Source: an uncultured Opitutia bacterium (GTDB lineage: Bacteria; Verrucomicrobiota; Verrucomicrobiia; Opitutales; Opitutaceae). From it: DNA of 64,000 nt. Positions 4,690 to 61,748 of this stretch are shown piece by piece. The notes below the pieces were generated by a model. That model saw only the letters and a list, made by a program, of their open reading frames with translations. It searched no databases and had not been told where the DNA came from. Positions within the stretch are counted from its first letter, which is position 1; each line of letters starts with the position of its first letter. The position numbers were made by a program, and so were the translations under genes. The stretch covers positions 248,001-312,000 of the forward strand of contig CAIPAH010000023.1 of assembly GCA_903862955.1 (NCBI GenBank), read 5' to 3'.

Positions 4690-4764
4690 TGGAGGCGCGG
4701 GCCGGAATTGAACCGGCGCATAGAGGTTTTGCAGACCTCGGCCTTACCACTTGGCTACCGCGCC
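4690..4764 (-). tRNA. tRNA-Cys (GCA)
   Basis: The minus strand folds as a full cloverleaf. The acceptor stem GGCGCGG pairs with CCGCGCC. The anticodon loop CTGCAAA gives anticodon GCA (Cys). The T arm is CCGGTTCAATTCCGG. The discriminator base is U, typical for tRNA-Cys, and the 3' CCA is encoded at 4692-4690. Confidence 0.97.
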
Positions 4765-26565: not shown

Positions 26566-27198
26566 TTACGAGGAGGCCTCGGTTGGCGCGGGCGCCGGGC
26601 GGGTGATGGCCCAGGCGACGAGGCCGCAGACCGAGCCGCTGATGTGGGCGAGGGGCACGACGCGGAAGCCGGCGAAGTCATGCACCAGCAGCGGCGCACC
26701 GGTCACGGTTTCCAAGGCGATCTTGACCATGACGAGGCCGGACACGGCCACCCAGAACCAGGTGGGCTCGGCGTTGTTTTCGCTCAGCTGCACGAAGGCC
26801 AGAAAGACCAGGACACCGGTGGCGACGCCGGAGAGGCCGGCGTAACGCTCGAGGTCAGGCTCGCCGACCAGCAGGCACGCGGAGATGATGGGCGGACATG
26901 CGAGGTAGAACCACCGGGCGGACCGCGGCCGGATGTATTCCAGCCAGCAACCCGCCGCGAGGAAGATGACGAGGTTCCAGATGAGATGGCTGGAGCTGAA
27001 ATGGACGATGTGGCCGGTCCAGGCGCGCCAGATTTGGCCGTGCAGGAGGAGGTTGCGATTGTAGAGCAGCCAGCTGTTGAGGACCGGAAAACAAAAAACC
27101 AACGCCGACACTGCGGCGATGGCGAGCGTGGCCCCCGGCAAGGCGGGCGGAGGCGGAGGAAGTTTTTGGTCTTCTTTCGTCGGCACCGAAGCCACCAC
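26566..27198 (-). CDS. Rhombosortase-like rhomboid intramembrane protease (copy 1)
   Basis: A 210-aa polytopic membrane protein of the rhombosortase branch of rhomboid serine proteases, which cleave GlyGly-CTERM C-terminal sorting signals. Features: WRAWTGHIVHFSSSHLIWNLVIF (the early His/Asn region), ERYAGLSGVATG with nucleophile Ser123, and VPLAHISGSVCG with His185, giving the Ser-His dyad. About five to six hydrophobic helices are visible. The start is GTG 27198; the ATG beside it is out of frame. It lies 80 nt downstream of a second rhombosortase gene and two candidate substrates. Confidence 0.87.
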   Translation of the reverse strand: MVASVPTKEDQKLPPPPPALPGATLAIAAVSALVFCFPVLNSWLLYNRNLLLHGQIWRAWTGHIVHFSSSHLIWNLVIFLAAGCWLEYIRPRSARWFYLACPPIISACLLVGEPDLERYAGLSGVATGVLVFLAFVQLSENNAEPTWFWVAVSGLVMVKIALETVTGAPLLVHDFAGFRVVPLAHISGSVCGLVAWAITRPAPAPTEASS

Positions 27199-27278
27199 AT
27201 TAGGGCAAGCGCGCCGGAAAACCAGCCCGCAAATGGCGGGGTTTTGCCGCCATTACCCGTGAGCGGCAAACGATGCTT

Positions 27279-27878
27279 TCAGGGCGAAGCTTTCCGGCCC
27301 AATCCACCGACCAGCATGAGTCCGGCGCAAACCGCGGCGGCGATGTGGGCCGACGTGGCGACGTGAACCTCGGGATCGTCAAACTGGATCATGCCGCCAC
27401 CCCGGCCGTGACCGACGGTGGATTCGAGGACGATTTCGCCCACGTAAATGGCGAGCACGGCGGGCCAGAACCAGTCCTTCCAGTTGCGCTGCCAGCCCTG
27501 GCCGGCAACGAAAAGCAACAGCGCGAGATCCACCGCGCTCAGTCCGCCGTAACGGGTCAGGCTTGGTGCAAAGAAATACACGGCGGCGGAAATGACGGCC
27601 GGGAGGAGGAAAAGGACCAGCGCAAACAGCCGGGCCGGCCTGACACCGACCATGTAGCCGAGGATGACGAACAACCCCGTGTCCGCGATAAAGTGCGGCC
27701 AGCCAAAGTGGACCAAGTGCCCGGTCCACACCCGCCACCATTCGCCGCGGCTAATCGCCGCCCGGTCGTAGAGCAGGACCGGTCGCCACGCAGGTTGAGA
27801 CTGGATGACGAGCGCCGCCAATGCAGTGGCGAGGAACACCCAAGCCAGCCTACATTTCAGCCAGCTCCGGACGTTCAT
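27279..27878 (-). CDS. Rhombosortase-like rhomboid intramembrane protease (copy 2, divergent active site)
   Basis: A 199-aa polytopic membrane protein. WRVWTGHLVHFGWPHFIADTG parallels copy 1. The Ser114 region is RYGGLSAVDLA, where copy 1 has GLSG, and His178 lies in TSAHIAAAVCAG. The Ser and His are kept but the flanking Gly is replaced by Ala. Its ATG overlaps the stop of the upstream metalloprotease gene as ATGA, so enzyme and probable substrate are translationally coupled. Confidence 0.85.
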   Translation of the reverse strand: MNVRSWLKCRLAWVFLATALAALVIQSQPAWRPVLLYDRAAISRGEWWRVWTGHLVHFGWPHFIADTGLFVILGYMVGVRPARLFALVLFLLPAVISAAVYFFAPSLTRYGGLSAVDLALLLFVAGQGWQRNWKDWFWPAVLAIYVGEIVLESTVGHGRGGGMIQFDDPEVHVATSAHIAAAVCAGLMLVGGLGRKASP

Positions 27879-29092
27879 CCTCTTTTAGCCCGGAGGCGTC
27901 GCATGCAGGCCAGCAGGCCCAGAGCGCCGAGGAACCAGCCGCTGGGCGCACCGCCGCCACCACCGCCACCGCCGGATGACGTGGGTGGAATGGTGGAGGA
28001 GGTGGAAGTGCTTCCGGAGCTGGCGAACGAAAGATTGAGCGTGACCGCAGCGCAGTCGGCACCATGACCGTCACTGGCGTTGAAGCCGTCGACGCCGAAA
28101 TAATACGTGACGCCCGAAGTTGCGCTGAAAGTGACCGAGCTGTATTGGACGACTCCGGGCTGGACGTCATCGCTGAAAGTAATCGTGGTCAGCGAACCGA
28201 CGGAAGAACCGGTATAAACCCCGAGGGTCGTGTCAAAAAGGCTGCCTTGGGTCGTCAGGGTGGCGGTGCCGGTGCTGGGGGCCGTCCATTTCCACCAGAC
28301 GGAACGGCCGCCGGAGTTGCCGGCGTGGTTGGGCTCGCCTGCCTCCTTGGTGGCATTGGTGTTGTAGCCCGTGACCGTGGCGGAGGTGCCGCTCAACGTG
28401 ATGGCGGTGGCGGAAGCAAAGTTGTCGTTGGCCGGCACACCGGGCGGGCCGTAAAGGCTTTGTGCCCCGTTGATGTCGTCGGCCTGGAGCGAGTCGATGC
28501 TGCTCTCATGGCTGTTCATGATGGCGGTGACCGTCTGCCCATTCTCGTCGGGATGGTCCAGGCCCAGGGTGTGGCCGAATTCGTGCAGGGCCACCCGCTG
28601 GATGTCCTCCTTGCCGGCCATGGCGCCGGCATGGAGCGGGCCGCGATAGGAGTCCCAGGTGAACGCGGTGTTGAAGATCGTGTCCGCCTCGACGCGGTCG
28701 TTCCCGTTATACCAGGCGGTGGTGATGGCGAGCGTGTTGCTGTCCCACGTTGTGCCGTAGGGAGAAGCCGAGAAGAAGACCTCGTTAATGCTGTTGCCAT
28801 CGGAGCCGTTGCCCGGGGCGACGATGGTCGAGGTGAACTGGGCGTCGCCGAGATTGGGATTCCAGCCGCGGGTGGCGCCTTGCAACGCCGCCTGCAGGGT
28901 GGTGGCGCGGGTGTTGCCGTCGCTGAGCACGATCGAGTTATCCACCATGAGCTTCATCGCGATGTTGCCCGGTGCCCACTTGAGCGGGAGGTGGGTAGTG
29001 TCATTCGTGATAAACACAAAACCGCTGGCCAGTGCGAGCAACGCTCCTCCCGCCGCGACCAGAACCAGGAAATGCGGGCGCTTAGTTCGCAT
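27875..29092 (-). CDS. Secreted matrixin-type metalloprotease with GlyGly-CTERM-like tail
   Basis: A 405-aa exported protease. Signal or anchor helix about residues 8-28. Metzincin catalytic domain about 35-215, with the zinc motif HEFGHTLGLDH (170-180) and Met-turn IMNS. Residues about 221-355 resemble a bacterial pre-peptidase C-terminal beta domain (NDNFASATAITL...). The C-terminus has a Ser/Thr linker, eight Gly, APSGWFLGALGLLACM, then RRLRAKRG: a Gly-rich stretch, helix and basic end as in GlyGly-CTERM. It overlaps the companion gene by 11 nt and the rhombosortase gene by 4 nt. Confidence 0.88.
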   Translation of the reverse strand: MRTKRPHFLVLVAAGGALLALASGFVFITNDTTHLPLKWAPGNIAMKLMVDNSIVLSDGNTRATTLQAALQGATRGWNPNLGDAQFTSTIVAPGNGSDGNSINEVFFSASPYGTTWDSNTLAITTAWYNGNDRVEADTIFNTAFTWDSYRGPLHAGAMAGKEDIQRVALHEFGHTLGLDHPDENGQTVTAIMNSHESSIDSLQADDINGAQSLYGPPGVPANDNFASATAITLSGTSATVTGYNTNATKEAGEPNHAGNSGGRSVWWKWTAPSTGTATLTTQGSLFDTTLGVYTGSSVGSLTTITFSDDVQPGVVQYSSVTFSATSGVTYYFGVDGFNASDGHGADCAAVTLNLSFASSGSTSTSSTIPPTSSGGGGGGGGAPSGWFLGALGLLACMRRLRAKRG

Positions 29093-29738
29093 TGGTCGGG
29101 GTGGAGTTGGCGTGGCGGGCGAGCGACTGGCGAACCTGGATGGAAAACTCGGTCATGGTCAGCGGGCGCGGGCCGGCGCTGGCCACGGCAGTGGCCGGCG
29201 TCATGGGTTGGACCACGTCCTTCACGTCGTAAAGCGCGCTGCCATTGCTCCGATGCACCACGTCCTGTCCCGTCGAGGGATCGTGCTGGACGAGGAACTG
29301 GCCATACATGATGGCCACGAGCGGGATGAACTGCCGGCCGTTGCCGCGGATGAACAGGATGTCGTCATCGCCGACCAGAAACGCAGGTGCGCCCTCCACG
29401 ACCATGCGGGTCTGACCGATGGTGCCACCGAGCACTTGCAGCACGAGCGGCGACGGGGGCAGGCCCTTGATGACCTCGGTCACCTGGATGGTCACCATGG
29501 TGATGATGTGCCGGCCCCCGCTGTCGGTGCGCCACTCGGACGTCGCGGATTTCACCACGCCGCGCACGACGTAGTCGGCCTGGCTGACGAGCGAATCGAA
29601 ATCGGGGGCCACCACGCTGGTGGCCCGGGCACGGAGCGGGAGCAGCCCCACGGCCAGCGCTACGACCGCACTGGACCAGAATCGGAAGCGTTTCACACGG
29701 GGTGTGACGACGGGAAGACGGGTCGGGTTCCTCAACAT
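29082..29738 (-). CDS. Secreted companion protein of metalloprotease cassette 1 (unknown family)
   Basis: A 218-aa exported protein (signal FWSSAVVALAVGLLPLRARA) from ATG 29738, with GAGGAG upstream; the frame to 29828 is a leader artefact. No known domain recognised. It is clearly paralogous to 32381-32989: both share FDSLVSQADYVVR, a beta-rich core with EVIKG-PPS-LVL, GDxDILFI-GNG, PLVxxMYG, RSNGxxLYD and QPMTP. It ends Asn-Ala-Asn and its stop overlaps the metalloprotease start by 11 nt. Inhibitor, chaperone or trans-acting propeptide roles are possible guesses. Confidence 0.8.
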   Translation of the reverse strand: MLRNPTRLPVVTPRVKRFRFWSSAVVALAVGLLPLRARATSVVAPDFDSLVSQADYVVRGVVKSATSEWRTDSGGRHIITMVTIQVTEVIKGLPPSPLVLQVLGGTIGQTRMVVEGAPAFLVGDDDILFIRGNGRQFIPLVAIMYGQFLVQHDPSTGQDVVHRSNGSALYDVKDVVQPMTPATAVASAGPRPLTMTEFSIQVRQSLARHANSTPTNAN

Positions 29739-29928
29739 TGAAGATTTTCTCCTCAAATAAAGCCGGTCGGCGATTGCGGACGTAACTAGGTGTCGCCGGA
29801 TGACTGCGCGAGGCAAAACATCAGGCACGGGCCGCCAACCCTTCAGGGTGCGCTTAGGCAGAAAGGCCAGCGACCGGGGCGAGCCCGGGCTGATCTCGTC
29901 TCACAGTAGGCGCCTGCTGCGCAATCCA

Positions 29929-32391
29929 TTATCTTCTCTTGGCAAACAATCTGCGCGCAAGGCCCAGCAGACCCAGGGCACCGAAGAACCACGTGCTGGG
30001 CGCGCCGCCCCCGCCGCCGCTGCTGCTGGAACTGGACGATCCATTGGTGGGCGGGATGGTGCTCGTGGTGCTCGAGGTGGTAGTGGCCGCAACGAGGGGC
30101 AGGGTCGTGACGACACCCGCAGGCGTGATGAGGCGGATCGAGGCGTTGCCAGTGTCGGCGACAAACACGTTGCCGGTGCCGTCCACGGTGAGCGCTTTGG
30201 GTTGATTAAACCATGCATCGCTGCCGGTGCCGTCCTTGAATCCCGCGACGCCTGGCAGGCCTGCCAGAGTCGTGACAAGCCCGGCTGGGGTGACCTTCCG
30301 GATGCTGGAGTTGCCCGTGTCGGCGAGATAGACGTTCCCGGAGCCATCCACCGCGAGACCGCCGGGCGTATTGAACAACGCATTGCTGCCGACGCCGTCA
30401 CTGGAGCCCACCACCCCGACCACGCCGGCAACCGTGGTGACGACCCCGGCCGGGGTGATTTTGCGCAGGAGGTTGTTCGTGGTGTCGGCGACGTAGATAT
30501 TGCCGCTACTGTCCAGGGCGATGCCGGTCGGGTTGTTGAATCTTGCCGCACTCGTGGTGCCGTCGGCGTAGCCCGCGATGCCCGCACTGCCGGCAACAGT
30601 GGTGACCACGCCGGCGGAAGTGACCTTGCGGATCGTGTGGTTCGTGGAGTCGGCGACATAGAGTGTGCCGGCGGTGTCGCGGGCGATACCGATGGGCATG
30701 GAGAAGGTCGCGGCCGACCCGGTGGCGTCGACGTTCCCGCGGACGGTGGGACTGCCCGCGAGCGTGGTAACCGTGCCGTCGGGTTGAATCACGCGGATGG
30801 TGGCATTGGCGGTATCCGAAACGCCGAGGATGCCATCCGCCGTGGAGCTCAAGCCGGTGGGTTGGTTAAAGCGCGCGACGCTGCCGGATCCGTCCTTGGA
30901 GCCAATGCCGTCGTTGGTACCGGCCGTGCTGGTGGCTCCGGCGAGCGTTGAGACCGAAGTGGAGGATGTGATTTTCTGGATGGTTAAGAACGAGGTGTCG
31001 CTCACGTAGAGATTGCCCGAGGCATCGATCGTGATGCCCGCGGGAAAAGCAAAAAAGGCTTGGATGACGATAAGCGTGCCATACCCGGTGGTGGTAACGA
31101 CGCCATTGGCGTCCGTGATCACGGCGCGGTAGCGCAGGCCGGACATGCCGGCGCCGACGGTCGCGATGGTGAGATTGGCGGTGCTCGATCCGCTATAGGT
31201 GGAGCCATCCGTAGTATTGGACCAACTATTCCCGTTATTCGTGGAAACCTGCCATTGGACGGTTCCTGCACCGGCATTGACCGAGAACGTGACACCGTGC
31301 CCGTTGGTGACCGTCGCACTCTTCACGGGGTAAGTGTCCGTGTAGGAAAGATTGAGCACGATGCCGCCGCAATCGGCGCCATTCCCGTCGTTCTTGTTGG
31401 ATCCGTCGACGGCGATGTAATAGGTGGTGCCGGAAGCGGCCGAGAACGTCACCGAACTGGTGCGGACGGCACCCGGTTGCGCATCGTCATTCGTTGCGAC
31501 GGTGGTGAGAGTCGTTACGTCCGAGCCGGTGTAAACACCTAGGGTGGTGTCGAAGGCACTGCCGGCGGTGGTGATGGTGACCTGGGAGGTCGAAGCAGCG
31601 GTCCATTGCCACCAGACCGAACGGCCGCCGACGTTGTTGCCGTGATTGGGTTCGCCGGCTTCCTTGGTGGCATTGGTGTTGTAGCCGGTTACGGTGATTG
31701 AGTTGCTTTGGAGGTTGATGGTGTTGGCGGAGGCAAAGTTGTCGTTATAGGTAGGGACCGGCGGGCCATAAAGAAACTGGGCGGCGAGGACATCATAGAC
31801 TTGGATCTGATCCGCGTCGACCGCGTCACTGTTCATGACGGAGGGGACGGTCAGGCCGGCGGTATCCGGGTGATCGAGACCGAGCGCATGACCCAATTCG
31901 TGCAACGCCACCCGCTGGAGGTCGACCGGGCTGGACTTGGCCGCACCGCGATAGGAATCCCAGGTCACCGCCGAGTTGAAAATGATGTCGGACTCCACGC
32001 GCTTGTCGCCCACATACCACGAGGTGGTCAGCGCGAGGGTGTTCGCTTCCCAATTCCGGTTGTAGGGCGTGCTGGCAAAGAAGACCTGGTTGATGTGGTC
32101 GCCGTCCGCGCCGTTGCCGGCGGGCAGGATTTGCGGGACGAACTGCACCGCACCCAGACGCAGATTCCACGCCTGCATGGCGGCCTGGATGCTGGTCGCC
32201 CGGGTCGTCCCGTCGGTCAGCACGGTCGTATTGTCGGCCATGATCCGCATTGGGATCGGGCCCGGGGCCCACCTCAGGGGGAAGCCGGTGGTGTCGCTCG
32301 TGAAATAGGCGTAATTAAAGCCGCAGGTTAGGAAGACCGCTGCCAAGCCGGCGAGGGCGCGGATCAGCAATTGGGGGGGATTAATTCGCAT
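29929..32391 (-). CDS. Secreted metalloprotease with NHL-type beta-propeller and GlyGly-CTERM-like tail
   Basis: An 820-aa exported protein from ATG 32391. Signal about residues 8-28; metzincin domain about 30-205 with HELGHALGLDH (164-174) and Met-turn VMNS; a beta domain like that of the shorter paralog (about 210-350); an Ig-like segment (about 355-440); then about six NHL-type repeats with units such as PTGIALDSSGNIYVADTTNN and VTTVAG (about 450-765). The tail has STIPPT, a Ser-rich run, five Gly, APSTWFFGALGLLGL and ARRLFAKRR. It is probably processed by the rhombosortases downstream. Confidence 0.88.
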   Translation of the reverse strand: MRINPPQLLIRALAGLAAVFLTCGFNYAYFTSDTTGFPLRWAPGPIPMRIMADNTTVLTDGTTRATSIQAAMQAWNLRLGAVQFVPQILPAGNGADGDHINQVFFASTPYNRNWEANTLALTTSWYVGDKRVESDIIFNSAVTWDSYRGAAKSSPVDLQRVALHELGHALGLDHPDTAGLTVPSVMNSDAVDADQIQVYDVLAAQFLYGPPVPTYNDNFASANTINLQSNSITVTGYNTNATKEAGEPNHGNNVGGRSVWWQWTAASTSQVTITTAGSAFDTTLGVYTGSDVTTLTTVATNDDAQPGAVRTSSVTFSAASGTTYYIAVDGSNKNDGNGADCGGIVLNLSYTDTYPVKSATVTNGHGVTFSVNAGAGTVQWQVSTNNGNSWSNTTDGSTYSGSSTANLTIATVGAGMSGLRYRAVITDANGVVTTTGYGTLIVIQAFFAFPAGITIDASGNLYVSDTSFLTIQKITSSTSVSTLAGATSTAGTNDGIGSKDGSGSVARFNQPTGLSSTADGILGVSDTANATIRVIQPDGTVTTLAGSPTVRGNVDATGSAATFSMPIGIARDTAGTLYVADSTNHTIRKVTSAGVVTTVAGSAGIAGYADGTTSAARFNNPTGIALDSSGNIYVADTTNNLLRKITPAGVVTTVAGVVGVVGSSDGVGSNALFNTPGGLAVDGSGNVYLADTGNSSIRKVTPAGLVTTLAGLPGVAGFKDGTGSDAWFNQPKALTVDGTGNVFVADTGNASIRLITPAGVVTTLPLVAATTTSSTTSTIPPTNGSSSSSSSGGGGGAPSTWFFGALGLLGLARRLFAKRR

Positions 32392-32989
32392 TGGCCGAAG
32401 GCTGGGATGCATGTTGGGAAGCTGAGGCGCGGATCTTGTCCGCAAAGGCGGAGACGGTGAGCGGGCGCGCGGCAATTTGGGCCGCGTTGGGCGTCATGGG
32501 CTGAGACACTTCGTTTGTGTCGTACAGCGGGATGCCATTGCTGCGGAGGACAATCTCCTCACCCGAGACGGAATCGCGCACGATCGGGTAGCGGCCATAC
32601 ATCAGGCCCACCAGCGGGGAGAATTGCTGCCCGTTGCCATGGATGAAAAGTATGTCCTCGTCCCCGACTTTGAATTTGGGCACGCCATCCACGGCCATGG
32701 TGATTTCGCCCATGGTCCCGCCGAGCATCTCCAACACGAGGGAGGAGGGCGGGTCGCCCTTGATGACCTCACGAACCGTCAGCTCCACCTTGGTGACAAT
32801 GGATCGATTGGCGCCTTCCACTTGCCACTCCGAGTTCACCGACTTGACGACCGTGCGGACCACATAATCGGCCTGGCTGACCAAGGAATCGAAGGCGGGC
32901 GCGGTTACGGTCGTGGCGAAGGCGGCCGGGGACGCCATGCCAAGAGAAAGCGCGAATAGGGCACACGCGCGAAGCTGGGATCGTTTCAC
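32381..32989 (-). CDS. Secreted companion protein of metalloprotease cassette 2 (unknown family)
   Basis: A 202-aa exported protein (signal ACALFALSLGMASPAAFA), paralog of 29082-29738. Shared blocks: FDSLVSQADYVVR, VxxSEW, EVIKGDPPSSLVL, GDEDILFIHGNGQQF, PLVGLMYG, RSNGIPLYD and QPMTP. It ends SANAN. The last codons overlap the next gene as AATGCGAATTAA, the same arrangement as cassette 1. No cysteine-rich or membrane C-terminus, so it is probably soluble periplasmic or secreted. This is the first gene of the apparent operon. Confidence 0.8.
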   Translation of the reverse strand: MKRSQLRACALFALSLGMASPAAFATTVTAPAFDSLVSQADYVVRTVVKSVNSEWQVEGANRSIVTKVELTVREVIKGDPPSSLVLEMLGGTMGEITMAVDGVPKFKVGDEDILFIHGNGQQFSPLVGLMYGRYPIVRDSVSGEEIVLRSNGIPLYDTNEVSQPMTPNAAQIAARPLTVSAFADKIRASASQHASQPSANAN

Positions 32990-33076: not shown

Positions 33077-34696
33077 CTAGCCCTTGCGCGTTGCGACCTC
33101 GATCACGTCATGCGGGGCGGCTTCCTTCTGGCCGGCGGCGCTGACCTGGACGTAGCGGGCCTTGGCCCGCAGTTCGGGGAGATTCGCGGCGCCGAGGTAG
33201 CCCATGCCGGACTGGACGCCTCCAATCAGCGTGGCCAGCACGTCGTCAACCGAACCGGAAACTTCCTTGAGCGCCTCGATGCCTTCGGCGGCGGCCTTGC
33301 GGGTATGGTCGGCCTTGTCGTGGCCGTAGCGGCTGGCTGAGCCGGCTTTCATGGCGGCGTGGCTGCCCATGCCGCGATACTGTTTGTAGACCTTGCCGCT
33401 GATCTCGATGATTTCGCCCGGCGCCTCGCGGCAGCCGGCGAGCAATCCGCCGCAGATGACGGCGTCGGCGAGCGTGAGCGCCTTGACGATGTCGCCGGAC
33501 TTGGTGATGCCGCCGTCGGCAATCAGGCGGACGCCCTTCTTTTTCGCCGCAATGCTGGCGACGTAGAGCGCGGTAAGCTGGGGAATGCCGACGCCGGCGA
33601 CGATGCGCGTGGTGCAGATGGACCCGGGGCCCTGGCCGACCTTGATGGCGTTGGCGCCGCAGTCGGCGAGGAAGGAGACGCCCGCGGCGCTGGTGACGTT
33701 GCCGGCGATCAGGGTGAGAGCGGGAAAGGCGGCGCGGACCATCTTCACGACCTCGCCCATGCTGGTGGTGTGGCCATGCGCGGAGGAAACGGCGATCGCG
33801 TCGATGTGCTCGTCGACCAGGTGTCCGACGTGGGTGAGTATCTGGTCGCGGTCGAGCGTGCCGTCGGGCTTGCGGAGCGGCGAGAGCGCGGCGCCGACGA
33901 CGAGGCGGAACTGGGCGTCGCGGGCGGGCTTGTGGCGGGCCTTGGCCTCACCGGTGATCTTCTCGACGTCGGAAATCGTGACGAGGCCGCGCAGGTGGCC
34001 GGCGGGGTCCACGACGAGCATCTTGTTGAGGCCGACGTGGGAGGAAAAGAAGTGGTCCGCGGCCTTGATCGGGTCCTTCGCGACATCGCGCTCAAGCACG
34101 GTGATGAGCTGGGCGCGGGGCGTCATCACGGCGGAGACCTGCTTGGTCTTGTAGCGCTCCTTGACGACGTTGCCCGACAGGAGGCCGGCCAGCTTGCCGG
34201 CGCCGTCGACGACGGGGAAGGTCGAGAAAGCGAAGCGCTTGGCCTCGATCATGGCGATGACATCGCCAATGAGCTGACCGGGTGTGACGGTGATCGGATC
34301 CTGGATGAGGCCGTGGATGTGGCGTTTGACGCGCGCGACTTCCTTCACCTGCTCCTTCGCCGGCATGTTGTAATGAATGAGGCCGAGGCCGCCGTTGAGC
34401 GCCATGGCGATGGCCATGCGGGACTCGGTGACGGTGTCCATGTCCGACGAAATGACCGGGATCTGCAGTCGCAGCACGTCGGACAGCGCAGTCGCGGTGT
34501 TTGCGTCCTTGGGCAGGATCTCCGAATAGAGCGTCGCGAGCGAAACGTCGTCGAAGGTTAGCGCCGTCGGGAGACTGGCGCGGAAAAACGCGTCGGCCGG
34601 CAGGTAAAATTCCGCATCATCCTTTGCCGCAGGAACTGCGGCCAACTTGGCAGACGCGGGACGGGGGGACGTGGCAACCTTTGTCATGGTTGCCAT
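33077..34696 (-). CDS. guaB: Inosine-5'-monophosphate dehydrogenase
   Basis: A 539-aa enzyme oxidising IMP to XMP, the first step to GMP. N-terminal LTFDDVSL; tandem CBS domains at about 134-250 ([30 protein letters not shown]); catalytic loop [15 protein letters not shown] with Cys361; phosphate site [17 protein letters not shown]; flap [16 protein letters not shown] 34696 is used, with ATG 34687 possible. The extra N-terminal 30 residues (Ala/Lys/Pro-rich) are longer than usual. Confidence 0.96.
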
Positions 34697-34827
34697 GAAC
34701 GAAGTAGGGCCCTGCGCGCGGAGAGCAAATAGAAATTCGGGTTTAGGGTTATGCGGGCGGAATTTTCCACGGTCGTAGCCGAGTCGTCTTCCTTTTCCCG
34801 TGTCATCCGGCCTCAATTGGGTTTTCC

Positions 34828-35889
34828 ATGGGAGCGACAAATTTGCCTCCGATGCAGTATCGACTCCAATTCCGCCGTTACCGGCTGCCGTTTCGGTCCG
34901 CGATGCGGACGGCGCACGGGCCGTGGACGGAGCGTGAAGGCCTCCTGGTGCGGCTGGAGGATGCGGCGGGCGGGGTGGGTTATGGCGAGGCGGCGCCGAT
35001 CCCCTGGTTCGGGAGCGAAACCGTCGACTCCGCCGGGTCCGCCTGCCGGGAGCTGGGCGAAGCCGTTGATGACGAGCGTCTCGGCGCGCTGCCGCGCGAA
35101 CTGGGCTGTCTCAGGAACGCGTTGGCCGCTGCTCGTCCGCGCGAGAAAGCTTTCGCGCCCGTTCACCCGCATCTCGCGGTGGCGGCGCTGCTGCCGGCGG
35201 GCCGGGCAGTACTGGGGCTGATTGCGGCGAAGGCCGAGGCGGGGTTTCGGGTCTTCAAATGGAAGGTGGGCGTCGGCGACCCGGCCGATGAACTTGCCTT
35301 GCTGGACGACGTCTGTGCGGCGCTGCCCAGTGGCGCGAAGCTGCGGCTCGACGCCAACGGCGCCTGGGACCGGCGGCAGGCGGAGCGCTGGCTGGCGCGG
35401 TGTGCGGACCGCCCGGTGGAGTTCGTGGAGCAACCTGCCTTCGCCGGGCCTACGGCGGGCAGGCCCTCTGCGACAGAAATGCGAAAGGTTGATGATTTGT
35501 TGCGGGGGTTGGCGGGGGATTTTCCGACGCCGATTGCGTTGGACGAGTCGGTGGCGAGCGATGCCGACGTCGAGCGCTGGCTGGCGATGGACTGGCAGGG
35601 CGTGTGGGTCATCAAGCCGTCGCTGCTCGGCGATGTGGCGACGACGCTGGCCGGCCTCGCCAAGGCTCGGGCGACAGTGGTCTTTTCGTCCGCGTTGGAA
35701 ACCCGCCTCGGCGCGCAGGCGGCGTTGCGGGTGGCGTTTGGTTGGCAGGGCGAGCCGCGCGCGCTGGGCTTTGGCGTGTGGCCGCTGTTTGCAGACGGGC
35801 GATTTGACGGACCCTACGCGGGGCCGTTTTTGCATTGGGAAGATGTGAATCGGATCAACCCGGAGGCCGTATGGAACGCGCTGAGCTGA
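34828..35889 (+). CDS. menC: o-Succinylbenzoate synthase
   Basis: A 353-aa enolase-superfamily enzyme dehydrating SHCHC to o-succinylbenzoate in menaquinone synthesis. Motifs: [27 protein letters not shown] (Lys-x-Lys base), metal ligands in [17 protein letters not shown] and [10 protein letters not shown], and the second base in [11 protein letters not shown]. The start may be ATG 34852 ([14 protein letters not shown]) rather than 34828. The menE start overlaps the end of this gene by 19 nt. Confidence 0.88.
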
Positions 35890-56355: not shown

Positions 56356-58038
56356 ATGCGCCTCTCACCCCAACTCGTGATCGATGCCGGCGCCGGCCAT
56401 GTGGCCTTGGCGATCTTTGCCCCGGGTGCCGGTGGGCGGCTCGTCTTGGAGGATTTTGCGCGGGAGACGACGTCGTCCGATCCGTCCCTCGATGCTGGCT
56501 GGGTCGCACGCATGGCCGGGTCGCTGGCGAAGTTTTCTGCTGGGTGGAAGTTCCGCGGCCCGGCTGTCCTGGCGGTGCCGGGGCATATCACGATGACGAA
56601 GTTCATCCGGACGCTGGCGGTGATGCCGTCCCTGCGTGAACGGGTCATCCGGTTTGAGGCGGCGCAGAGCCTGCCCTTGCCTCTCGAAACCGTGGTGTGG
56701 GATCACCTGGTCGTGGCGGACGGGGAGGAGAACACCGAGATCATGCTCTCAGCGGTGAAGCTCGACGTGATGGAAAATCTCTGCGCTGCAGTCGAGGCAG
56801 CGGGCTTTCCGGCCAAGCGCGCCGTCTCGTCGTGTCGCGCGCTGGTTCAGGCATTTCGCTTCAATTACCCGGACGCCACCGGGCCGGTGCTGGTCGTGGA
56901 CGTGGGGGCGCGTGCCACAAATGTCCTCGTGATCGGGCCGGCGGGACGGTTTTTCGCCCGGACGCTGCTGCTGGGCGGCAACGCAATCACTGCGGCCGTG
57001 GCGGAGGAGTTGCAGGTCGATTACGCCGCTGCGGAGAAGCTCAAGATTGAGGCAGTTCAGCATCGACCCGACCGCCATTTCGATTCGCCGGCAAGGGCGA
57101 CGGTCGAACGGTCGGCGGCGGATTTCGCGGGGCGGTTGCAGCAGGAAATCGTGCGCACGGTGGGGAGTTTTGGTTGGCGGACGGGAACGCCACCGCCGGT
57201 TGCCCTGTATCTCACGGGCGGCGGTGCGAACTTGCCGGGCCTCGAATCGGCGCTCGCGGAGAGTTTGAAAATGCCGGTGCGACGCTACGACGCGCTGCGG
57301 AATATTGAACTGTCCGGGAAGGCTCGGTCCGCCGGCGCCGCCGAGGCGGGACACCTTTTGGCCAATTTGGTGGGCCTCGCGGCGTCCCGGCCCCGCGAGG
57401 TGGGTTCGGCGAGCGGCTTGCTGCCGCCGGGAATTCGGGCGGCTCGGACGTTCCGGCGGAGACAGCGCGCGTTGCTTTGCGCGGGGGCGCTGCTCGTTTT
57501 CGCCCTGCTGGCCCCGATCTGGCACTTCCGCCGCTTGGCCGAAGCGGAGCGCGCGCGGGTCGCCGACCTCCGTGCGCAACTGCCGTCCGTGCAGGCCATC
57601 GCGCAGCAAAATGACGCGAACCTGGGGCGGTTGGCGGTGACGAGCCGGCAGATCGATGCGACGCGGCGGGTCCTCGAAGCCCGGTCGAGTTGGATCGAAT
57701 TCCTGGGCGACCTCGAATCCCGGCTGGCGAGTGCGGGGGACGTTTGGCTCGACCGACTCGCCGTGATATCGCCGCCGCCCACGCGAGTGGAAGCGAGGGG
57801 CCGGACGGCGTTGCCGCCGCCGGTTGGTCAACTGCGAGTGGGTGGGCGGCTGTTTGACGCAGGAAACCCCTTGGGGAAAGTCGGACCGGGGGCGTATGCG
57901 CGATTGCAGACTCTGCTGGCCAGCCTCACGGCGTCGCCGTTCGTTGCGACCATCGCGGACGAGCATTTTGACAACTCCCAGCCCGGGATCCTGCGTTTTG
58001 ACTTCACGCTGACGGTCGACCCTCAGCATCCGCTCTGA
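56356..58038 (+). CDS. PilM-PilN fusion, pilus inner-membrane assembly protein (Amuc_1101-like)
   Basis: A 560-aa fusion. Residues about 1-350 form a PilM actin-like ATPase: LVIDAGAGHVALAIF, VLVVDVGARATNVLVI and LTGGGANLPGLESALAE. A membrane helix follows (about 373-395, LLCAGALLVFALLAPIW). Residues about 395-560 form a PilN-like coiled coil and domain (RVADLRAQLPSVQAIAQ ... SWIEFLGDLESRLASAGDVW). In Akkermansia Amuc_1101 is the PilM-like member of the same locus. First gene of a four-gene operon; 5 nt separate it from the next. Confidence 0.88.
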   Translation: MRLSPQLVIDAGAGHVALAIFAPGAGGRLVLEDFARETTSSDPSLDAGWVARMAGSLAKFSAGWKFRGPAVLAVPGHITMTKFIRTLAVMPSLRERVIRFEAAQSLPLPLETVVWDHLVVADGEENTEIMLSAVKLDVMENLCAAVEAAGFPAKRAVSSCRALVQAFRFNYPDATGPVLVVDVGARATNVLVIGPAGRFFARTLLLGGNAITAAVAEELQVDYAAAEKLKIEAVQHRPDRHFDSPARATVERSAADFAGRLQQEIVRTVGSFGWRTGTPPPVALYLTGGGANLPGLESALAESLKMPVRRYDALRNIELSGKARSAGAAEAGHLLANLVGLAASRPREVGSASGLLPPGIRAARTFRRRQRALLCAGALLVFALLAPIWHFRRLAEAERARVADLRAQLPSVQAIAQQNDANLGRLAVTSRQIDATRRVLEARSSWIEFLGDLESRLASAGDVWLDRLAVISPPPTRVEARGRTALPPPVGQLRVGGRLFDAGNPLGKVGPGAYARLQTLLASLTASPFVATIADEHFDNSQPGILRFDFTLTVDPQHPL

Positions 58039-58043
58039 TCGCG

Positions 58044-58967
58044 ATGCCCTGGCTGCGCAAATACCCCGGCTTTGCCGTCGCTTGGTTGGTTCTCGGTCTC
58101 GTCGTGCTGGGCGAAGGGGCGGCCTTGGGCGTCGAAGTGAAAGCTGCGCGCAGCGCGGCCAAGTCCGCCAGCCAGCTCAGCCGCGAACTCCACGCGCTGG
58201 TGTCGCGCAATCCAGCTCCCACGCCAGACACGAAGGAGCAAATTGAGGCTGACCTCCAACGGGCGAACGAGGCGCTCGCCGAATTGCGGGCGGCCTTGGT
58301 TGCCCACGGGCCGATGGCGGAGCGCGGCCTGAGCGCGGTGGCTCCCGTTCGTCGCGCGGAAGCGTTCTTCGACCTGGCGGCTTTCATCGAGGCGATGCGG
58401 CTCCGCGCACGGCAGTCGGGGATCGTCGTGAAGGCGGACGAATGCTTCGGGTTCGCCGCGTATGCCCATGAGGCGCCGGAAGCGGGGCGCATCGGCGCCG
58501 TCTTCCGCGAGCGGATGGAGGCGCAATATCTCGTGGAGACGTTGCTGGATGCCCAGCCCGTGGAGCTGCTGGCAGTGCAGCGGGAGGCGCCGCTGCCGGA
58601 AGCGGCCCAGTCGAGTTCGTCCACGCCGCGAGTGTTCCCCGTGGCCAAGTTGCCGAACAAGGCGACGCCGGACGGTTTCGAAATGGACCGGGCGCTGAGT
58701 TTGCGAACCCCGGGGAGTGTCGACACGACGGCGTTTCGGCTCGCGTTCACGGGCAGAACCGAGGTCCTGCGGGCGCTCCTGAACCGGTTCGCAGAGTATG
58801 AACTGCCGGTGGTGGTCCGCTCGGTGGAGGTCAGTCCGTTTGAGGAAAGGGTGAAAAACGTGAATCGTGCTTCCGCGGAAACGCCTCCGCTCATTGCGCC
58901 GGGGCTGACCCGTTTTTGCGTCACCGTTGAATTTGTTGCCGTGCCGCCGGCAACGCCCGCTGCCTGA
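58044..58967 (+). CDS. Amuc_1100-family pilus-like protein (PilO-like)
   Basis: A 307-aa protein with one N-terminal membrane helix (about residues 9-31) and a helical linker (SASQLSRELHALVSRNP), then an alpha/beta periplasmic domain. Its place after PilM/PilN and before the Amuc_1099-like and secretin genes matches Amuc_1100 of Akkermansia, a PilO-like protein. The family assignment rests mainly on order and layout. It starts 5 nt after the PilM/PilN gene and is followed after 2 nt. Confidence 0.82.
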   Translation: MPWLRKYPGFAVAWLVLGLVVLGEGAALGVEVKAARSAAKSASQLSRELHALVSRNPAPTPDTKEQIEADLQRANEALAELRAALVAHGPMAERGLSAVAPVRRAEAFFDLAAFIEAMRLRARQSGIVVKADECFGFAAYAHEAPEAGRIGAVFRERMEAQYLVETLLDAQPVELLAVQREAPLPEAAQSSSSTPRVFPVAKLPNKATPDGFEMDRALSLRTPGSVDTTAFRLAFTGRTEVLRALLNRFAEYELPVVVRSVEVSPFEERVKNVNRASAETPPLIAPGLTRFCVTVEFVAVPPATPAA

Positions 58968-58969
58968 CC

Positions 58970-59833
58970 ATGCGACGCCCCACCTTGGAACACGCGCTCC
59001 TCGTCGCCGGCCTGCTCGCCGTGTTGGGCTCCGCCGTGGTTTTTCTCGGCCGGGACTTTTTTGGAAGGAACCGCCTGCACCGCTCGATGGGCGACGGCTT
59101 GCATCGCGCGGTGAGATATGTCCGGGCGGATCTCGATGAGAGCATTCCCGCGATTCAAAAATGGCTGCCGCCAGTGGCTCAGGCGCGTGGAGCTGGATGG
59201 ATCTACGAGGCCTTCACCCCGCCGGAAGTGACTTACGATGCCCGGAAGCGGGAACTCACGGCAATCCCCTCGTGCCGGGAGCTGGAAGCGCGCCGGCCCG
59301 AGTTCGAGTTGGTGGCCGTGAGGCGGGAGCCGTTCCGGCTGCAGCTTTTGGGCTATTTGGGCGGCGAAGGAAGCTATCGCGGGGTGTTCGAGAACTTGCG
59401 CTCGGGCGAGGTGACGCTCGCTGGCCCGGGACAGGTGGTGCCGGAGCTGGGCCTCGTCATCGCGGATTTTCACGTCACGCGCCGGAGCGTGATGCTCGCG
59501 GACGGGACCAGCTCCGACCAATGGGTGGCGGACGCGATTGTGCGGGATAGCTTCACGGGTCAAAGCACCGCGCTGGCGGCAGGGGAGCGCAGTTTCGCCG
59601 ACGCCCTGAGTGCAGTCGTGGCGGGGAATGAGGATGACGATCAGCCGACGTTCGAGCTGCGGGAGGGCGAGGAGTTCCGGAACTCGGATCTCACTTATCG
59701 CGTCGAGCACGTTCGTCTCGACCCGCCGGCCGTCGAGTTGACGCAACGATCAGCACGCTCCGCCGAGTTCACGCGCTTCACGTTGACGGCGGACAAAGCC
59801 CAAAGTCCCCGCGCATTGAGCGCAGCGAACTGA
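58970..59833 (+). CDS. Amuc_1099-family pilus-like system protein
   Basis: A 287-aa protein with an N-terminal membrane helix (HALLVAGLLAVLGSAVVFLG, about residues 8-27) and a periplasmic beta-rich domain (about 85-270, with LQLLGYLGGEGSYRGVFENL). The position between the Amuc_1100-like and secretin genes matches Amuc_1099 of Akkermansia. No enzyme motif. It probably links the inner-membrane complex to the secretin, like PilP. 2 nt after the previous gene, 7 nt before the secretin gene. Confidence 0.8.
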   Translation: MRRPTLEHALLVAGLLAVLGSAVVFLGRDFFGRNRLHRSMGDGLHRAVRYVRADLDESIPAIQKWLPPVAQARGAGWIYEAFTPPEVTYDARKRELTAIPSCRELEARRPEFELVAVRREPFRLQLLGYLGGEGSYRGVFENLRSGEVTLAGPGQVVPELGLVIADFHVTRRSVMLADGTSSDQWVADAIVRDSFTGQSTALAAGERSFADALSAVVAGNEDDDQPTFELREGEEFRNSDLTYRVEHVRLDPPAVELTQRSARSAEFTRFTLTADKAQSPRALSAAN

Positions 59834-59840
59834 CGATCCT

Positions 59841-61748
59841 ATGAAGTCGCATTTGAAGATGAAGGTCGTGCTGATCCTGCTCGCGGGTGTCACGCTTGGC
59901 GCTGTCCGGTTGCAGGCGGTTGCGGAACCGGTGCACGCCGTTGGGCCGATCGAGCCGCCGCGCGAAGAGACGCGCAAGGTGCTGATCGATGATGTGGCGC
60001 GTAGCTGGAAACCGCCCGAGACGACGGCGACGCATGCGGAGGTTGTATCTCCGGCCGCGGCGGTTGGACCGATTGTCGCGAAGTTGAATGAGATCGTCCT
60101 GCCGACGGTGAGTTTCACGCGCGTCCCCATCGGCCAGGTGGTGGCGGCATTGGGCGCGGCGGCGGAGCAGTTTGACCAGGCGGCCACGCTGCCGAAGGGC
60201 ATCAACCTGGTGTTGCTCGACCCCGAAAACCGGGCGCCGACGGTGACGATCACGTTGCGCAATGCCCCGCTTCGGCGAGTGCTCGACCTGGTTACGGCGT
60301 CCATCGGTTATCAATACGAAGTCCAGGCCGACGCCGTGATGGTCCGGCCGGGTGGTGAGGTAACATCGTTGGAGACGGCGTTTTTTCCCGTTACGCGGGC
60401 GACGGTTTTGCGGCTGGCAGGAACTCCCGAGCACTCCCGGTCCAAGAACACACCTGGCGGTCGCCGCGTGCCGGCTTCGGCTGGAGGCGGGCGGGACTCG
60501 GACGATGCGGCAGCGACCTCGGCCGCACTGGGCAGCGAGGGCTGGGCGATCAGGGCTTTTCTCCAGCAGGCGGGCGTGAATTTCGACGCCATCGCGGGGG
60601 CCAGCCTGGCCTACGATGGCTCGGCGATTATTGTCACGCAGAGTCCGCAGAACCTGGAGCGCATCCGGAACATCCTGGCCCGTTACAAGGAGGTCCGCCA
60701 GGTGGAGATCGAGGCGAAGTTCATGGAGGTGCAGGACGGCGTGTTGGAGGAACTGGGGATAAACTGGAACGTGACGACGAAGGCCAGCCAGCTCAACGCG
60801 GGCGCGCAGGCCGCCTATGTGACCCAGAATCGCTCCCTGGCCGACGCTTTCGTCAACCGCTCGTCGAGCCAGCAGGGCAGCATCATCCGGCCGGAGGGCA
60901 CGATCGTGGCGAGCGACGGCACCACGACCACCACGCCGGGGCTCAACCTGCCGATCGTCAACCATGCGCCGCAGATTCCGGGCACGGCCGATCTGGGCTC
61001 GGCGGCGGGTCCGCTGATCGACATCGCTGGCGTGCTGGGGGAATACGATGTCAACGCAGTCGTGCGCGCACTGTCGCAGCACCAAGGCACTGACCTGCTC
61101 AGCGCGCCCAAGTTGACGGTGTTGTCCGGAAATCCGGCGACGATCACCATCGCGCAGGAGATGCGCTATCCGCAAAGCTACGGGCAGACGCAGAGCCAGG
61201 TCGGGACCGGCAACGCCAACGGGGGAGGGTCCGCGGGCGTGGCGATCACCGCGGGCACGCCGCAGGAGTTCACTTCGCGCAACGTGGGCGTCGAGCTGCG
61301 CGTCACGCCGACGGTCGAGGAGGACAATTTCAGCATCAGCCTCGATCTGAATCCCAAGGTCACGGAATTCGACGGGTTCGTGGAATTCGGCGGTTCGAGC
61401 ATCGCGATCTCGGGCGGCACAACCGTCACGGTGCCCTCGGGATTCTACCAGCCGATCTTCTCCGTGCGGGACATCTCCACGAAGGTTACTATCTGGGACG
61501 GAGCGACGCTGGTGATGGGCGGCTTGACCCGCGAGGAAGTGAAGCAGGTGCACGACAAGGTTCCGATCCTGGGCGATTTGCCCCTGCTGGGTCGGCTGTT
61601 CCGCTCGAAGAGTACGAGCTCGCAGAAGCGCAACCTGCTCATCTTCGTGACGGCGCGGCTCGTGAACCCGGGAGGCGCGCCCATGTCCCGGCCGACCGCG
61701 GCAACGCAGCACCTGGCGTCGGCTGACGGAGGCAAAACCGGCCGCTGA
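59841..61748 (+). CDS. Secretin, Amuc_1098-family type IV pilus outer-membrane protein
   Basis: A 635-aa secretin. Signal peptide (VVLILLAGVTLGAVRLQA), N-terminal and N1-type domains (ITLRNAPLRRVLDLVTASIG, SPQNLERIRNILARYKEVRQVEIEAKFMEV as the N-domain to secretin junction), and the C-terminal gate and barrel (LLSAPKLTVLSGNPATI, VGVELRVTPTVEEDNFSISL, VPILGDLPLLGRLF, RNLLIFVTARLV). It would form the outer-membrane channel for a pilus or secretion system. Last gene of the operon. Confidence 0.93.
   Translation: MKSHLKMKVVLILLAGVTLGAVRLQAVAEPVHAVGPIEPPREETRKVLIDDVARSWKPPETTATHAEVVSPAAAVGPIVAKLNEIVLPTVSFTRVPIGQVVAALGAAAEQFDQAATLPKGINLVLLDPENRAPTVTITLRNAPLRRVLDLVTASIGYQYEVQADAVMVRPGGEVTSLETAFFPVTRATVLRLAGTPEHSRSKNTPGGRRVPASAGGGRDSDDAAATSAALGSEGWAIRAFLQQAGVNFDAIAGASLAYDGSAIIVTQSPQNLERIRNILARYKEVRQVEIEAKFMEVQDGVLEELGINWNVTTKASQLNAGAQAAYVTQNRSLADAFVNRSSSQQGSIIRPEGTIVASDGTTTTTPGLNLPIVNHAPQIPGTADLGSAAGPLIDIAGVLGEYDVNAVVRALSQHQGTDLLSAPKLTVLSGNPATITIAQEMRYPQSYGQTQSQVGTGNANGGGSAGVAITAGTPQEFTSRNVGVELRVTPTVEEDNFSISLDLNPKVTEFDGFVEFGGSSIAISGGTTVTVPSGFYQPIFSVRDISTKVTIWDGATLVMGGLTREEVKQVHDKVPILGDLPLLGRLFRSKSTSSQKRNLLIFVTARLVNPGGAPMSRPTAATQHLASADGGKTGR

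What the first reader, a model, noticed from the sequence alone, without database searches (positions are those of the whole stretch)
26566..32989. Rhombosortase module with co-encoded tagged metalloproteases and companion proteins
Six genes on one strand form a self-contained set: companion protein, metalloprotease with GlyGly-CTERM-like tail, companion protein, metalloprotease with the same tail, rhombosortase, rhombosortase. Three of the five junctions overlap (11, 11 and 4 nt). The general rhombosortase system is known as one enzyme serving many scattered substrates; here enzymes and substrates are in one operon with a third, unrecognised partner family. This looks like a dedicated secretion and surface-release module in Verrucomicrobiota.
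Basis: partly seen in the sequence, partly recalled or inferred. Interest (0 to 1): 0.85.

Follow-up and report, generated by a model that had tools for sequence, protein, structure and literature searches.

The report
TIMP-like partners of tagged bacterial matrixins
A bacterium encodes tail-tagged cousins of animal matrix metalloproteases side by side with small exported proteins that appear to fold like the animal inhibitors of those enzymes, and the same protease-plus-partner pair occurs in another bacterial phylum with a different tag.

Summary
The six genes are real, at the stated places. Both rhomboids exceed the rhombosortase cut-off, but rhombosortase beside its substrate is already published, including in Opitutus. 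The new element is the companion family. It goes with the protease: 69 of 72 named loci found by companion alone have a matrixin next door; the other three companions sit at contig ends. A rhombosortase adjoins 16 of 19 pairs whose matrixin has the Gly-rich tail, 1 of 59 without it. In a second phylum the companion occurs in 205 of 282 genomes, and several partners have MYXO-CTERM-like tails. I noted "TIMP-like inhibitor" before any structure search. The predicted fold then found TIMP/NTR domains at ranks 1-22, first TIMP-2 in complex 1bqq; the protease model finds MT1-MMP of the same crystal at rank 2. The nearly invariant mature N-terminus matches TIMP-1/-2 best at identical numbering. Best reading: a protease-inhibitor pair whose tailed proteases are sorted by rhombosortase. 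Inhibition is inferred; TM-scores are modest (0.28-0.41); no Pfam or profile link to TIMP was found.

The parts
32381..32989 (-). companion 1: exported TIMP/NTR-like protein; signal peptide (read by eye), then mature protein TTVTAPAFDSLVSQADYVVR... (residue 26 onward, DNA 32914-32384)
   Evidence: no Pfam or NCBIfam family at E <= 1
29929..32391 (-). matrixin 1 (M10): 820 aa from the ATG overlapping companion 1 by 11 nt (ORF listing gives a TTG at 32475); catalytic domain with HELGHALGLDH, a following domain shared with matrixin 2, NHL repeats, Gly-rich tail
   Evidence: Pfam Peptidase_M10 4.1e-11 and NHL 1.2e-39
29932..30045 (-). C-terminal sorting tail of matrixin 1: ...SSSSGGGGGAPSTWFFGALGLLGLARRLFAKRR
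   Evidence: tail alignment with 10 other tails; TIGR03501 does not report it
29082..29738 (-). companion 2: TIMP/NTR-like protein, 53% identical to companion 1 (ORF listed from 29828; ATG at 29738 with GAGGAG upstream more likely); mature N-terminus TSVVAPDFDSLVSQADYVVR
27875..29092 (-). matrixin 2 (M10): 405 aa, HEFGHTLGLDH, no room for a pro-domain and no PRCG cysteine switch, Gly-rich tail
   Evidence: Pfam Peptidase_M10 2e-12; no P[RK]CG; model m55608dd4412b finds MMPs
27878..27985 (-). C-terminal sorting tail of matrixin 2: ...SSGGGGGGGGAPSGWFLGALGLLACMRRLRAKRG
   Evidence: 14.2 bits to TIGR03501, cut-off 15.5; alignment
27279..27878 (-). rhombosortase R2, the usual operon-linked type: Asp at the position of GlpG Asn154 (numbering recalled), GLSA, His kept
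   Evidence: TIGR03902 106.1 bits, cut-off 84; tree and residues
26566..27198 (-). rhombosortase R1, a second lineage: Asn, GLSG, His kept
   Evidence: TIGR03902 120.9 bits, cut-off 84; tree and residues

Best explanation
The core is a two-gene protease-partner unit, present twice here: an exported TIMP/NTR-like companion and an MMP-like matrixin with no pro-domain. Most likely the companion is translated first, is exported, and its free mature N-terminus (Thr1-Thr/Ser2-Val3) plugs the matrixin's zinc site, as Cys1 of TIMP does. That would keep the enzyme silent in the periplasm while it folds and is sorted. The Gly-rich tail would hold the matrixin in the inner membrane until a rhombosortase (R2, the usual partner; R1, a second lineage) cuts it and, by analogy with Vibrio VesB, passes it on to surface anchoring, where inhibition is relieved or regulated. 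Shown by computation: gene order, pairing, predicted folds, N-terminal conservation, link between tail and rhombosortase. Inferred: binding, inhibition, tail cleavage, surface location.
For: Pairing: 69 of 72 named loci found by companion alone have a same-strand matrixin within about 560 nt; the other 3 (L100, L118, L125) have their companion within about 650 nt of a contig end. The pair is kept in both gene orders. Trees of companion and matrixin agree (Mantel r 0.76 over 84 pairs; 376 of 20000 within-genome re-pairings reach it). Three proteins from one other family of the order carry a companion-like domain at the N-terminus of a metzincin. Fold: AF2 model pLDDT 85.8, pTM 0.82; Foldseek PDB ranks 1-22 all TIMP or NTR/agrin-type, best 1bqq_T, E 9.9e-4, probability 1.00, a hypothesis written down. 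The matrixin model's ranks 1-2 are MMP-10 in 3v96 and MT1-MMP in 1bqq, both MMP-TIMP complexes. N-terminus: Thr1 89, Thr/Ser2 91, Val3 93, Pro6 91 of 97; in the second phylum Thr 21, Ser 4, Ala 3 of 29 at position 1, Asp16 22 of 29. A gapless profile of residues 1-24 (121 sequences) scores TIMP-1 and TIMP-2 best at offset 0 (rank 1 of 103 and of 104; 0 of 5000 shuffles each; 0 of 1610 24-mers of the other four window proteins; 10 and 18 of 50000 random 24-mers reach them). The window matrixins have no PRCG switch, and in matrixin 1 the M10 match starts at profile position 2, about 40 residues from the ATG. Tail and rhombosortase: 16 of 19 against 1 of 59, Fisher p 9e-13.
Against: No sequence family links the companion to TIMP: no Pfam TIMP/NTR match in 64 members, no PDB sequence match to TIMP with three profiles, hhalign against TIMP-2 not significant (E 0.15, though it aligns residues 8-25 with 8-25). 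Only one Foldseek hit has E below 0.001; TM-scores of ranks 1-22 are 0.28-0.41 by query and 0.28-0.53 by target, and the two best by target (agrin) have rmsd near 13; the OB-fold is common. The mature window companions have no cysteine, so the disulfides that pin the TIMP N-terminus are absent. In the second phylum Thr/Ser at position 2 falls to 16 of 29 and Pro6 is lost, so the plug is less constant than in the window's relatives. In the one bacterial metzincin/TIMP-like pair that I found described (Listeria mtz-tim) the protease cleaves the TIMP-like protein and this release is held responsible for the effects seen (PMC8235301, passages). The tails fall below the GlyGly-CTERM cut-off. One pair has a rhombosortase but no tail (L121); three have a tail but no adjacent rhombosortase (L036, L075, L091; L091 has only 885 nt of room). 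One of 29 second-phylum companions has no metzincin in 10.5 kb (L265).
Confidence: 0.6

Rival explanations
1. The companion is a folding or secretion helper (steric chaperone, pilot) for a matrixin that has no pro-domain, not an inhibitor in the mature state.
For: As a rule translated before the matrixin in Opitutaceae and often overlapping it; fusion at the metzincin N-terminus, where pro-domains sit; no pro-domain in the window matrixins.
Against: The near-invariant mature N-terminus at a fixed distance from the fold and the TIMP-like register fit an active-site plug better than a general helper. Gene order is reversed in Chthoniobacterales.
Confidence: 0.2
2. As in the Listeria mtz-tim pair, the companion is mainly a substrate or effector: the matrixin cleaves it and the fragment acts elsewhere.
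For: Precedent of a metzincin with a TIMP-like lipoprotein (PMC8235301, passages).
Against: No Cys at mature position 1 in 97 companions, so no lipobox-type anchor at that place, and no long N-terminal region to shed; the conserved part is the very N-terminus.
Confidence: 0.1
3. One reading: a dedicated rhombosortase secretion module in which the companion serves the sortase or the sorting step.
For: Operon with two rhombosortases; companion, matrixin and two rhombosortases recur in four relatives (L059, L060, L061, L104).
Against: 58 of 59 companion-matrixin pairs without a Gly-rich tail have no adjacent rhombosortase. Five of 20 stand-alone relatives from the order carry one. The pair occurs with MYXO-CTERM-like tails in another phylum.
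Confidence: 0.05

Closest known systems
Dedicated rhombosortase with adjacent GlyGly-CTERM target (Haft and Varghese 2011; e.g. Opitutus terrae PB90-1, Cupriavidus metallidurans CH34)
   Same: A rhombosortase over the TIGR03902 cut-off next to a protein ending in Gly-rich motif, hydrophobic helix and basic residues.
   Different: Here two targets, two rhombosortases from different clades, and a TIMP/NTR-like partner for each protease; tails below the GlyGly-CTERM cut-off.
Animal TIMP with matrix metalloproteinases (e.g. MT1-MMP:TIMP-2, 1bqq)
   Same: Predicted NTR/OB fold, free mature N-terminus with Thr/Ser at position 2 (in the window's relatives) and the A/S-D-x-V/I-V/I-R motif at residues 15-20; partner with an MMP-like catalytic fold.
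   Different: No cysteines in the mature window companions, no profile match; encoded next to the protease; inhibition untested.
Listeria mtz-tim pair (PMC8235301, passages seen)
   Same: Metzincin gene next to a gene for an exported protein with TIMP-like structure; reported there in pairs in many Gram-positive bacteria.
   Different: Phage-linked lipoprotein that is cleaved by the metzincin; no sorting tail described; sequence relation to the companion not tested here.
Pseudomonas alkaline protease and its inhibitor (as named in PMC8235301)
   Same: A bacterial metzincin with its own inhibitor, said there to interact with its protease in a TIMP-like manner although unlike TIMP in structure.
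   Different: Different fold; that inhibitor is not among the 50 best Foldseek hits of the companion. Type I secretion of the protease is recalled.
MXAN_2677/MXAN_2678 family myxosortase-dependent metalloproteases (NF041905)
   Same: The partner matrixins score weakly to this model (E 5.6e-8 and 1.4e-5; 5.8e-15 for L127).
   Different: All far below its cut-off of 250 bits; the model's name says nothing of a partner gene, and no paper was found for it.

Membership tests
Rhombosortase (TIGR03902) | HMM score over the curated cut-off of 84 bits | tested here: met
   120.9 bits (R1) and 106.1 bits (R2)
Rhombosortase (TIGR03902) | Rhomboid catalytic Ser (GxSx) and His | tested here: met
   GLSG/His in R1, GLSA/His in R2; the 17 operon-linked first rhombosortases in the tree all have GLSA and Asp at the GlpG Asn154 position
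Rhombosortase (TIGR03902) | Cleaves GlyGly-CTERM proteins | not testable with these tools
   association of adjacency with tail only
GlyGly-CTERM (TIGR03501) | HMM score over 15.5 bits | tested here: not met
   matrixin 2 tail 14.2 bits; matrixin 1 tail not reported at E <= 1; neither
GlyGly-CTERM (TIGR03501) | Gly-rich motif, hydrophobic helix, C-terminal basic cluster | tested here: met
   sequence and 11-tail alignment; hydrophobic stretch judged by eye
Matrixin (M10) | Pfam PF00413 over 24 bits and HExxHxxGxxH | tested here: met
   47.7 and 43.4 bits; HEFGHTLGLDH and HELGHALGLDH
TIMP (as a homologous family) | Sequence profile match (Pfam TIMP/NTR or PDB TIMP sequences) | tested here: not met
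   hhalign to TIMP-2 E 0.15. A weaker test, a gapless 24-residue profile, does favour TIMP-1/-2 at offset 0
TIMP (as a homologous family) | Cys1-x-Cys3 N-terminus held by disulfides | tested here: not met
   Thr1-x-Val3; no Cys in either mature window companion
TIMP (as a homologous family) | NTR/OB-fold | tested here: met
   predicted model only; Foldseek ranks 1-22 TIMP or NTR/agrin-type, probability 0.87-1.00, but TM-scores 0.28-0.41 by query and 0.28-0.53 by target
TIMP (as a homologous family) | Inhibits metzincins through its N-terminal residue at the zinc | not testable with these tools
   needs biochemistry; residue conservation agrees

The most novel reading that the evidence does not exclude
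Bacteria have their own TIMP-MMP system: a large unnamed family of TIMP-fold inhibitors, paired with matrixins in at least two phyla, working by N-terminal zinc chelation, and coupled to whichever surface-sorting tag the lineage uses (rhombosortase, myxosortase or none). The common N-terminal register would then reflect either true homology with animal TIMPs or close convergence.
Probability: 0.45. Interest if true: 0.9.

Novelty: new variant of a known kind. Interest (0 to 1): 0.74.

Why it matters
A 2022 review describes TIMPs as present in all metazoans; its text has no word beginning 'prokaryot', and 'bacteria' only once, in a reference title (PMC9409782, passages). A widespread bacterial family with a TIMP-like fold, a conserved plug-like N-terminus and an MMP-like neighbour would make the origin of the TIMP-MMP system testable. 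It would also offer natural, cysteine-free metalloprotease inhibitors matched to their enzymes, and give function to a family found in 205 of 282 genomes of one phylum sample for which I found no Pfam entry (64 members scanned) and no NCBIfam entry (four members scanned). It also separates two questions that the operon mixes: what the companion does (protease control) and what the tail does (sorting).

Tried and rejected
Rejected: 'companion is a sortase accessory' (pairs without rhombosortase; MYXO-CTERM-like pairs). Rejected: 'the two rhombosortases are a recent tandem duplication' (separate supported clades). Rejected: 'first description of enzyme and substrate in one operon' (PMC3237569). 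Considered and not supported: serralysin-inhibitor fold for the companion (no such hit among the 50 best shown).

Led nowhere: hmmsearch of PDB with three companion profiles (one chance hit to topoisomerase, E 0.15; none otherwise); viral structure library (no match at E <= 0.001); paper searches for a bacterial TIMP/matrixin pair beyond Listeria (in one search only 12 of 1,723 papers were listed, none to the point). One search used wrong reading frames for four rows and was redone with new stretches.

Rows dropped before counts: one search drops L033, L037 and L041 as the same contigs as L064, L069 and L096 (equal contig lengths). Its 87 remaining loci include 9 whose matrixin is cut by the contig end; these are left out of the 19 and 59. 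The script paired the window with its upstream matrixin and so printed it as tail without rhombosortase; I recounted it by hand as tail plus rhombosortase. Several no-tail loci have under 1.5 kb downstream, so the 1 of 59 is an estimate. drop the same three and also L052, L054-L056, L089, L122, L125 and L126; one search leaves out L127 and L129 as well. The second-phylum check looked at the 29 loci L235-L263: 23 had an adjacent HExxHxxGxxH protein, 2 more after longer stretches were fetched, 3 are cut by contig ends, 1 (L265) has none in 10.5 kb. One of the 29 (L263) is misaligned at the N-terminus and kept in the counts. The random 24-mers come from ORFs that include companions themselves. 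The rows of the matrixin alignment were cut at profile ends, not at mature N-termini, so it is no control for the companion's N-terminus.
Full report
WHAT IS THERE. Six minus-strand genes at 26566-32989 follow an IMP dehydrogenase gene (33077-34840; best hit TIGR01302, 408 bits, cut-off 481.5). Read in the direction of transcription they are companion 1, matrixin 1, companion 2, matrixin 2, rhombosortase R2, rhombosortase R1. Overlaps of 11, 11 and 4 nt are exact. The two companions are 53% identical, the matrixins 56% over the aligned part, the rhomboids 35%. Matrixin 1 has NHL repeats between its shared domain and its tail. Start codons are my choice: ATG 32391 for matrixin 1 and ATG 29738 for companion 2.

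RHOMBOSORTASES AND TAILS. Both rhomboids exceed the rhombosortase cut-off. Both matrixins end in a Gly-rich motif, a hydrophobic stretch and basic residues, alike in 11 aligned tails, but the curated GlyGly-CTERM model does not accept them. The better test is genomic. In 87 companion-matrixin loci, 9 of them cut, a rhombosortase lies just downstream in 16 of 19 tailed pairs and in 1 of 59 untailed pairs, p 9e-13. One search adds four tailed pairs with a rhombosortase (L225, L226, L233, L234) and no contrary case. Exceptions: L121 has a rhombosortase but its matrixin stops before any helix; L036, L075 and L091 have tails but no adjacent enzyme. The genome of L036 has a rhombosortase of the R2 clade elsewhere (L164).

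TWO LINEAGES. A 55-row tree puts R2 with the 16 other operon-linked first rhombosortases in a clade of 20 (support 100/100; it also holds three enzymes without a companion in the 11 kb fetched: L164, L165, L173). R1 sits in another clade of 6 (99/98) with the second enzymes of L059, L060, L061 and L104 and one unlinked enzyme. So R2-R1 is a conserved tandem of two different lineages in five loci, window included, and R2 alone is the more usual partner. In the order sample, rhombosortases occur in 33 of 223 genomes (E <= 1e-15; 24 over the cut-off) and companions in 15 of 223. Of 20 regions fetched around rhombosortases not linked to a companion, 7 show a protein with a loosely matched Gly-rich tail. 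Dedicated pairs thus seem ordinary here, as Haft and Varghese reported for other genomes in 2011 (PMC3237569, first part and passages seen).

THE COMPANION BELONGS TO THE PROTEASE. A pattern scan of the genome collection with an alignment of eight companions alone gave 72 loci, 70 titled as Verrucomicrobiota (Opitutae/Opitutaceae, Chthoniobacterales, Spartobacteria and unplaced) and two as Myxococcales/Deltaproteobacteria. 69 of 72 have a same-strand matrixin within about 560 nt; in the other three the companion lies within about 650 nt of a contig end. As a rule the companion comes first in Opitutaceae and the matrixin first in Chthoniobacterales. At 67 companion-first junctions, 36 overlap by exactly 4 or 11 nt. 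All 20 stand-alone relatives from the order sample have the matrixin, 5 a rhombosortase (at least three of the 20 are contigs that also appear). Three genomes of one other family carry a single protein with a companion-like N-terminal domain and a C-terminal metzincin motif HEIGHALGLAH (L054-L056; one similar case, L221). Companion and matrixin trees agree (Mantel r 0.76); exchanging partners only within genomes reaches this in 376 of 20000 shuffles.

A SECOND PHYLUM. Of 29 fetched loci, 25 have an adjacent HExxHxxGxxH protein, 3 are cut by contig ends, 1 has none in 10.5 kb. Several end in Cys-containing MYXO-CTERM-like tails, judged by eye; L127's matrixin passes the MYXO-CTERM model (21.9 against 20 bits). 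The partner thus stays while the sorting tag changes.

TIMP-LIKE FOLD. From sequence alone I noted the TIMP hypothesis before any fold search. The AF2 model of mature companion 1 (64 sequences; pLDDT 85.8, pTM 0.82) finds TIMP-2 of the MT1-MMP complex 1bqq first (E 9.9e-4, probability 1.00, the only hit below 0.001), and ranks 1-22 are all TIMP or NTR/agrin-type domains; rank 23 is unrelated and other OB-folds follow with higher E-values. TM-scores of ranks 1-22 are modest, 0.28-0.41 by query. The model of matrixin 2 (pLDDT 80.3) finds MMP-10 from a TIMP-1 complex (3v96) and MT1-MMP from 1bqq first, then karilysin and serralysins. Sequence profiles find no TIMP link, and hhalign with TIMP-2 is not significant, though its only alignment puts residues 8-25 on residues 8-25.

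THE N-TERMINUS. Right after a typical AxA-like signal site the mature companion begins Thr1 (89 of 97), Thr/Ser2 (91), Val3 (93), x, Pro/Ala5 (96), Pro6 (91), and keeps Asp/Glu16 (78), Val/Ile18 (96) and Arg20 (62) at the same distance. In the second phylum position 1 is Thr/Ser/Ala in 28 of 29, with Asp16 in 22 and Val23 in all 28 well-aligned rows, but position 2 is Thr/Ser in only 16 of 29 and Pro6 is lost. A gapless 24-residue profile placed on TIMP-1 and TIMP-2 scores best at offset 0 for both (rank 1 of 103 and 104; none of 5000 shuffles reaches it; 10 and 18 of 50000 random 24-mers do). In TIMPs the N-terminal Cys1 coordinates the zinc (PMC9409782, passages). The window companions lack cysteines, so any zinc contact would be through the Thr1 amino and carbonyl groups; this is inference. 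Signal cleavage was read by eye, not predicted by a program.

MECHANISM. The window matrixins start their catalytic domain soon after the signal peptide: the M10 match of matrixin 1 begins about 40 residues from its ATG, matrixin 2 aligns with it there, and neither has a PRCG switch. A separately made inhibitor would fill that gap, as the fused proteins would in cis. For the tail, work on Vibrio reports rhombosortase cleavage, modification and type II secretion to the surface (PMC6219818, PMC11389362, PMC13393428: abstracts). The window's genome has three secretin matches; the one in the window belongs to an Amuc_1098-like pilus locus, so whether a type II system serves these proteases is open.

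VERDICT. The rhombosortase part is a variant of a published arrangement. The companion-matrixin pair is the new thing: a widespread family, not described in anything I found, that looks and is placed like a bacterial TIMP. The nearest precedent found is the Listeria mtz-tim pair, whose authors could find no record of bacterial proteins structurally similar to TIMPs (PMC8235301, passages). That I found no other report rests only on searches of one open-access library.

Noticed in passing
window 56356-61748 (+): Pilus locus like that of Akkermansia: PilM-like (Amuc_1101 family), Amuc_1100-family protein, an unmatched ORF, and an Amuc_1098-family secretin; all scores below the curated cut-offs.
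   Followed up: partly
L052 (own genome, contig C4, about 119356-119724): A third companion copy that is cut short, with no matrixin found in 14.5 kb: a decaying copy.
   Followed up: partly
L054:7863-9767, L055:6126-8174, L056:2793-4670, L221:4600-6408: Companion-like domain fused to the N-terminus of a metzincin, as a pro-domain would be.
   Followed up: partly
L004:1465-2988 (own genome, contig C22): Another protein with a Gly-rich C-terminal tail that passes the GlyGly-CTERM cut-off, far from the rhombosortases; no NCBIfam family at E <= 0.001.
   Followed up: partly
L035:4405-7791 and L046:1888-7506: Companion-paired matrixins whose C-termini look dockerin-like (DxNxDGxLSLSELLRVIELYN) instead of tailed; name recalled, not searched.
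   Followed up: no
many relatives, e.g. L044, L071, L079: Untailed companion-paired matrixins share a different C-terminal ending (like GAYTVQVSG...GVALIEVYELP) that could be another sorting or secretion domain.
   Followed up: no
window 27279-27878 (R2) and 39 other rows of the rhombosortase tree: Asp in place of the GlpG Asn154-type residue (numbering recalled) in 40 of 55 rhombosortase rows; R1 and 14 others keep Asn. Effect on activity or specificity unknown.
   Followed up: partly
L117:959-8911 and L227:4264-9661: Other tandem doublings of the companion-matrixin pair in relatives, without rhombosortase.
   Followed up: no
window 4690-4764 (-): tRNA-Cys (GCA), the only tRNA gene that ARAGORN finds in the window.
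   Followed up: no
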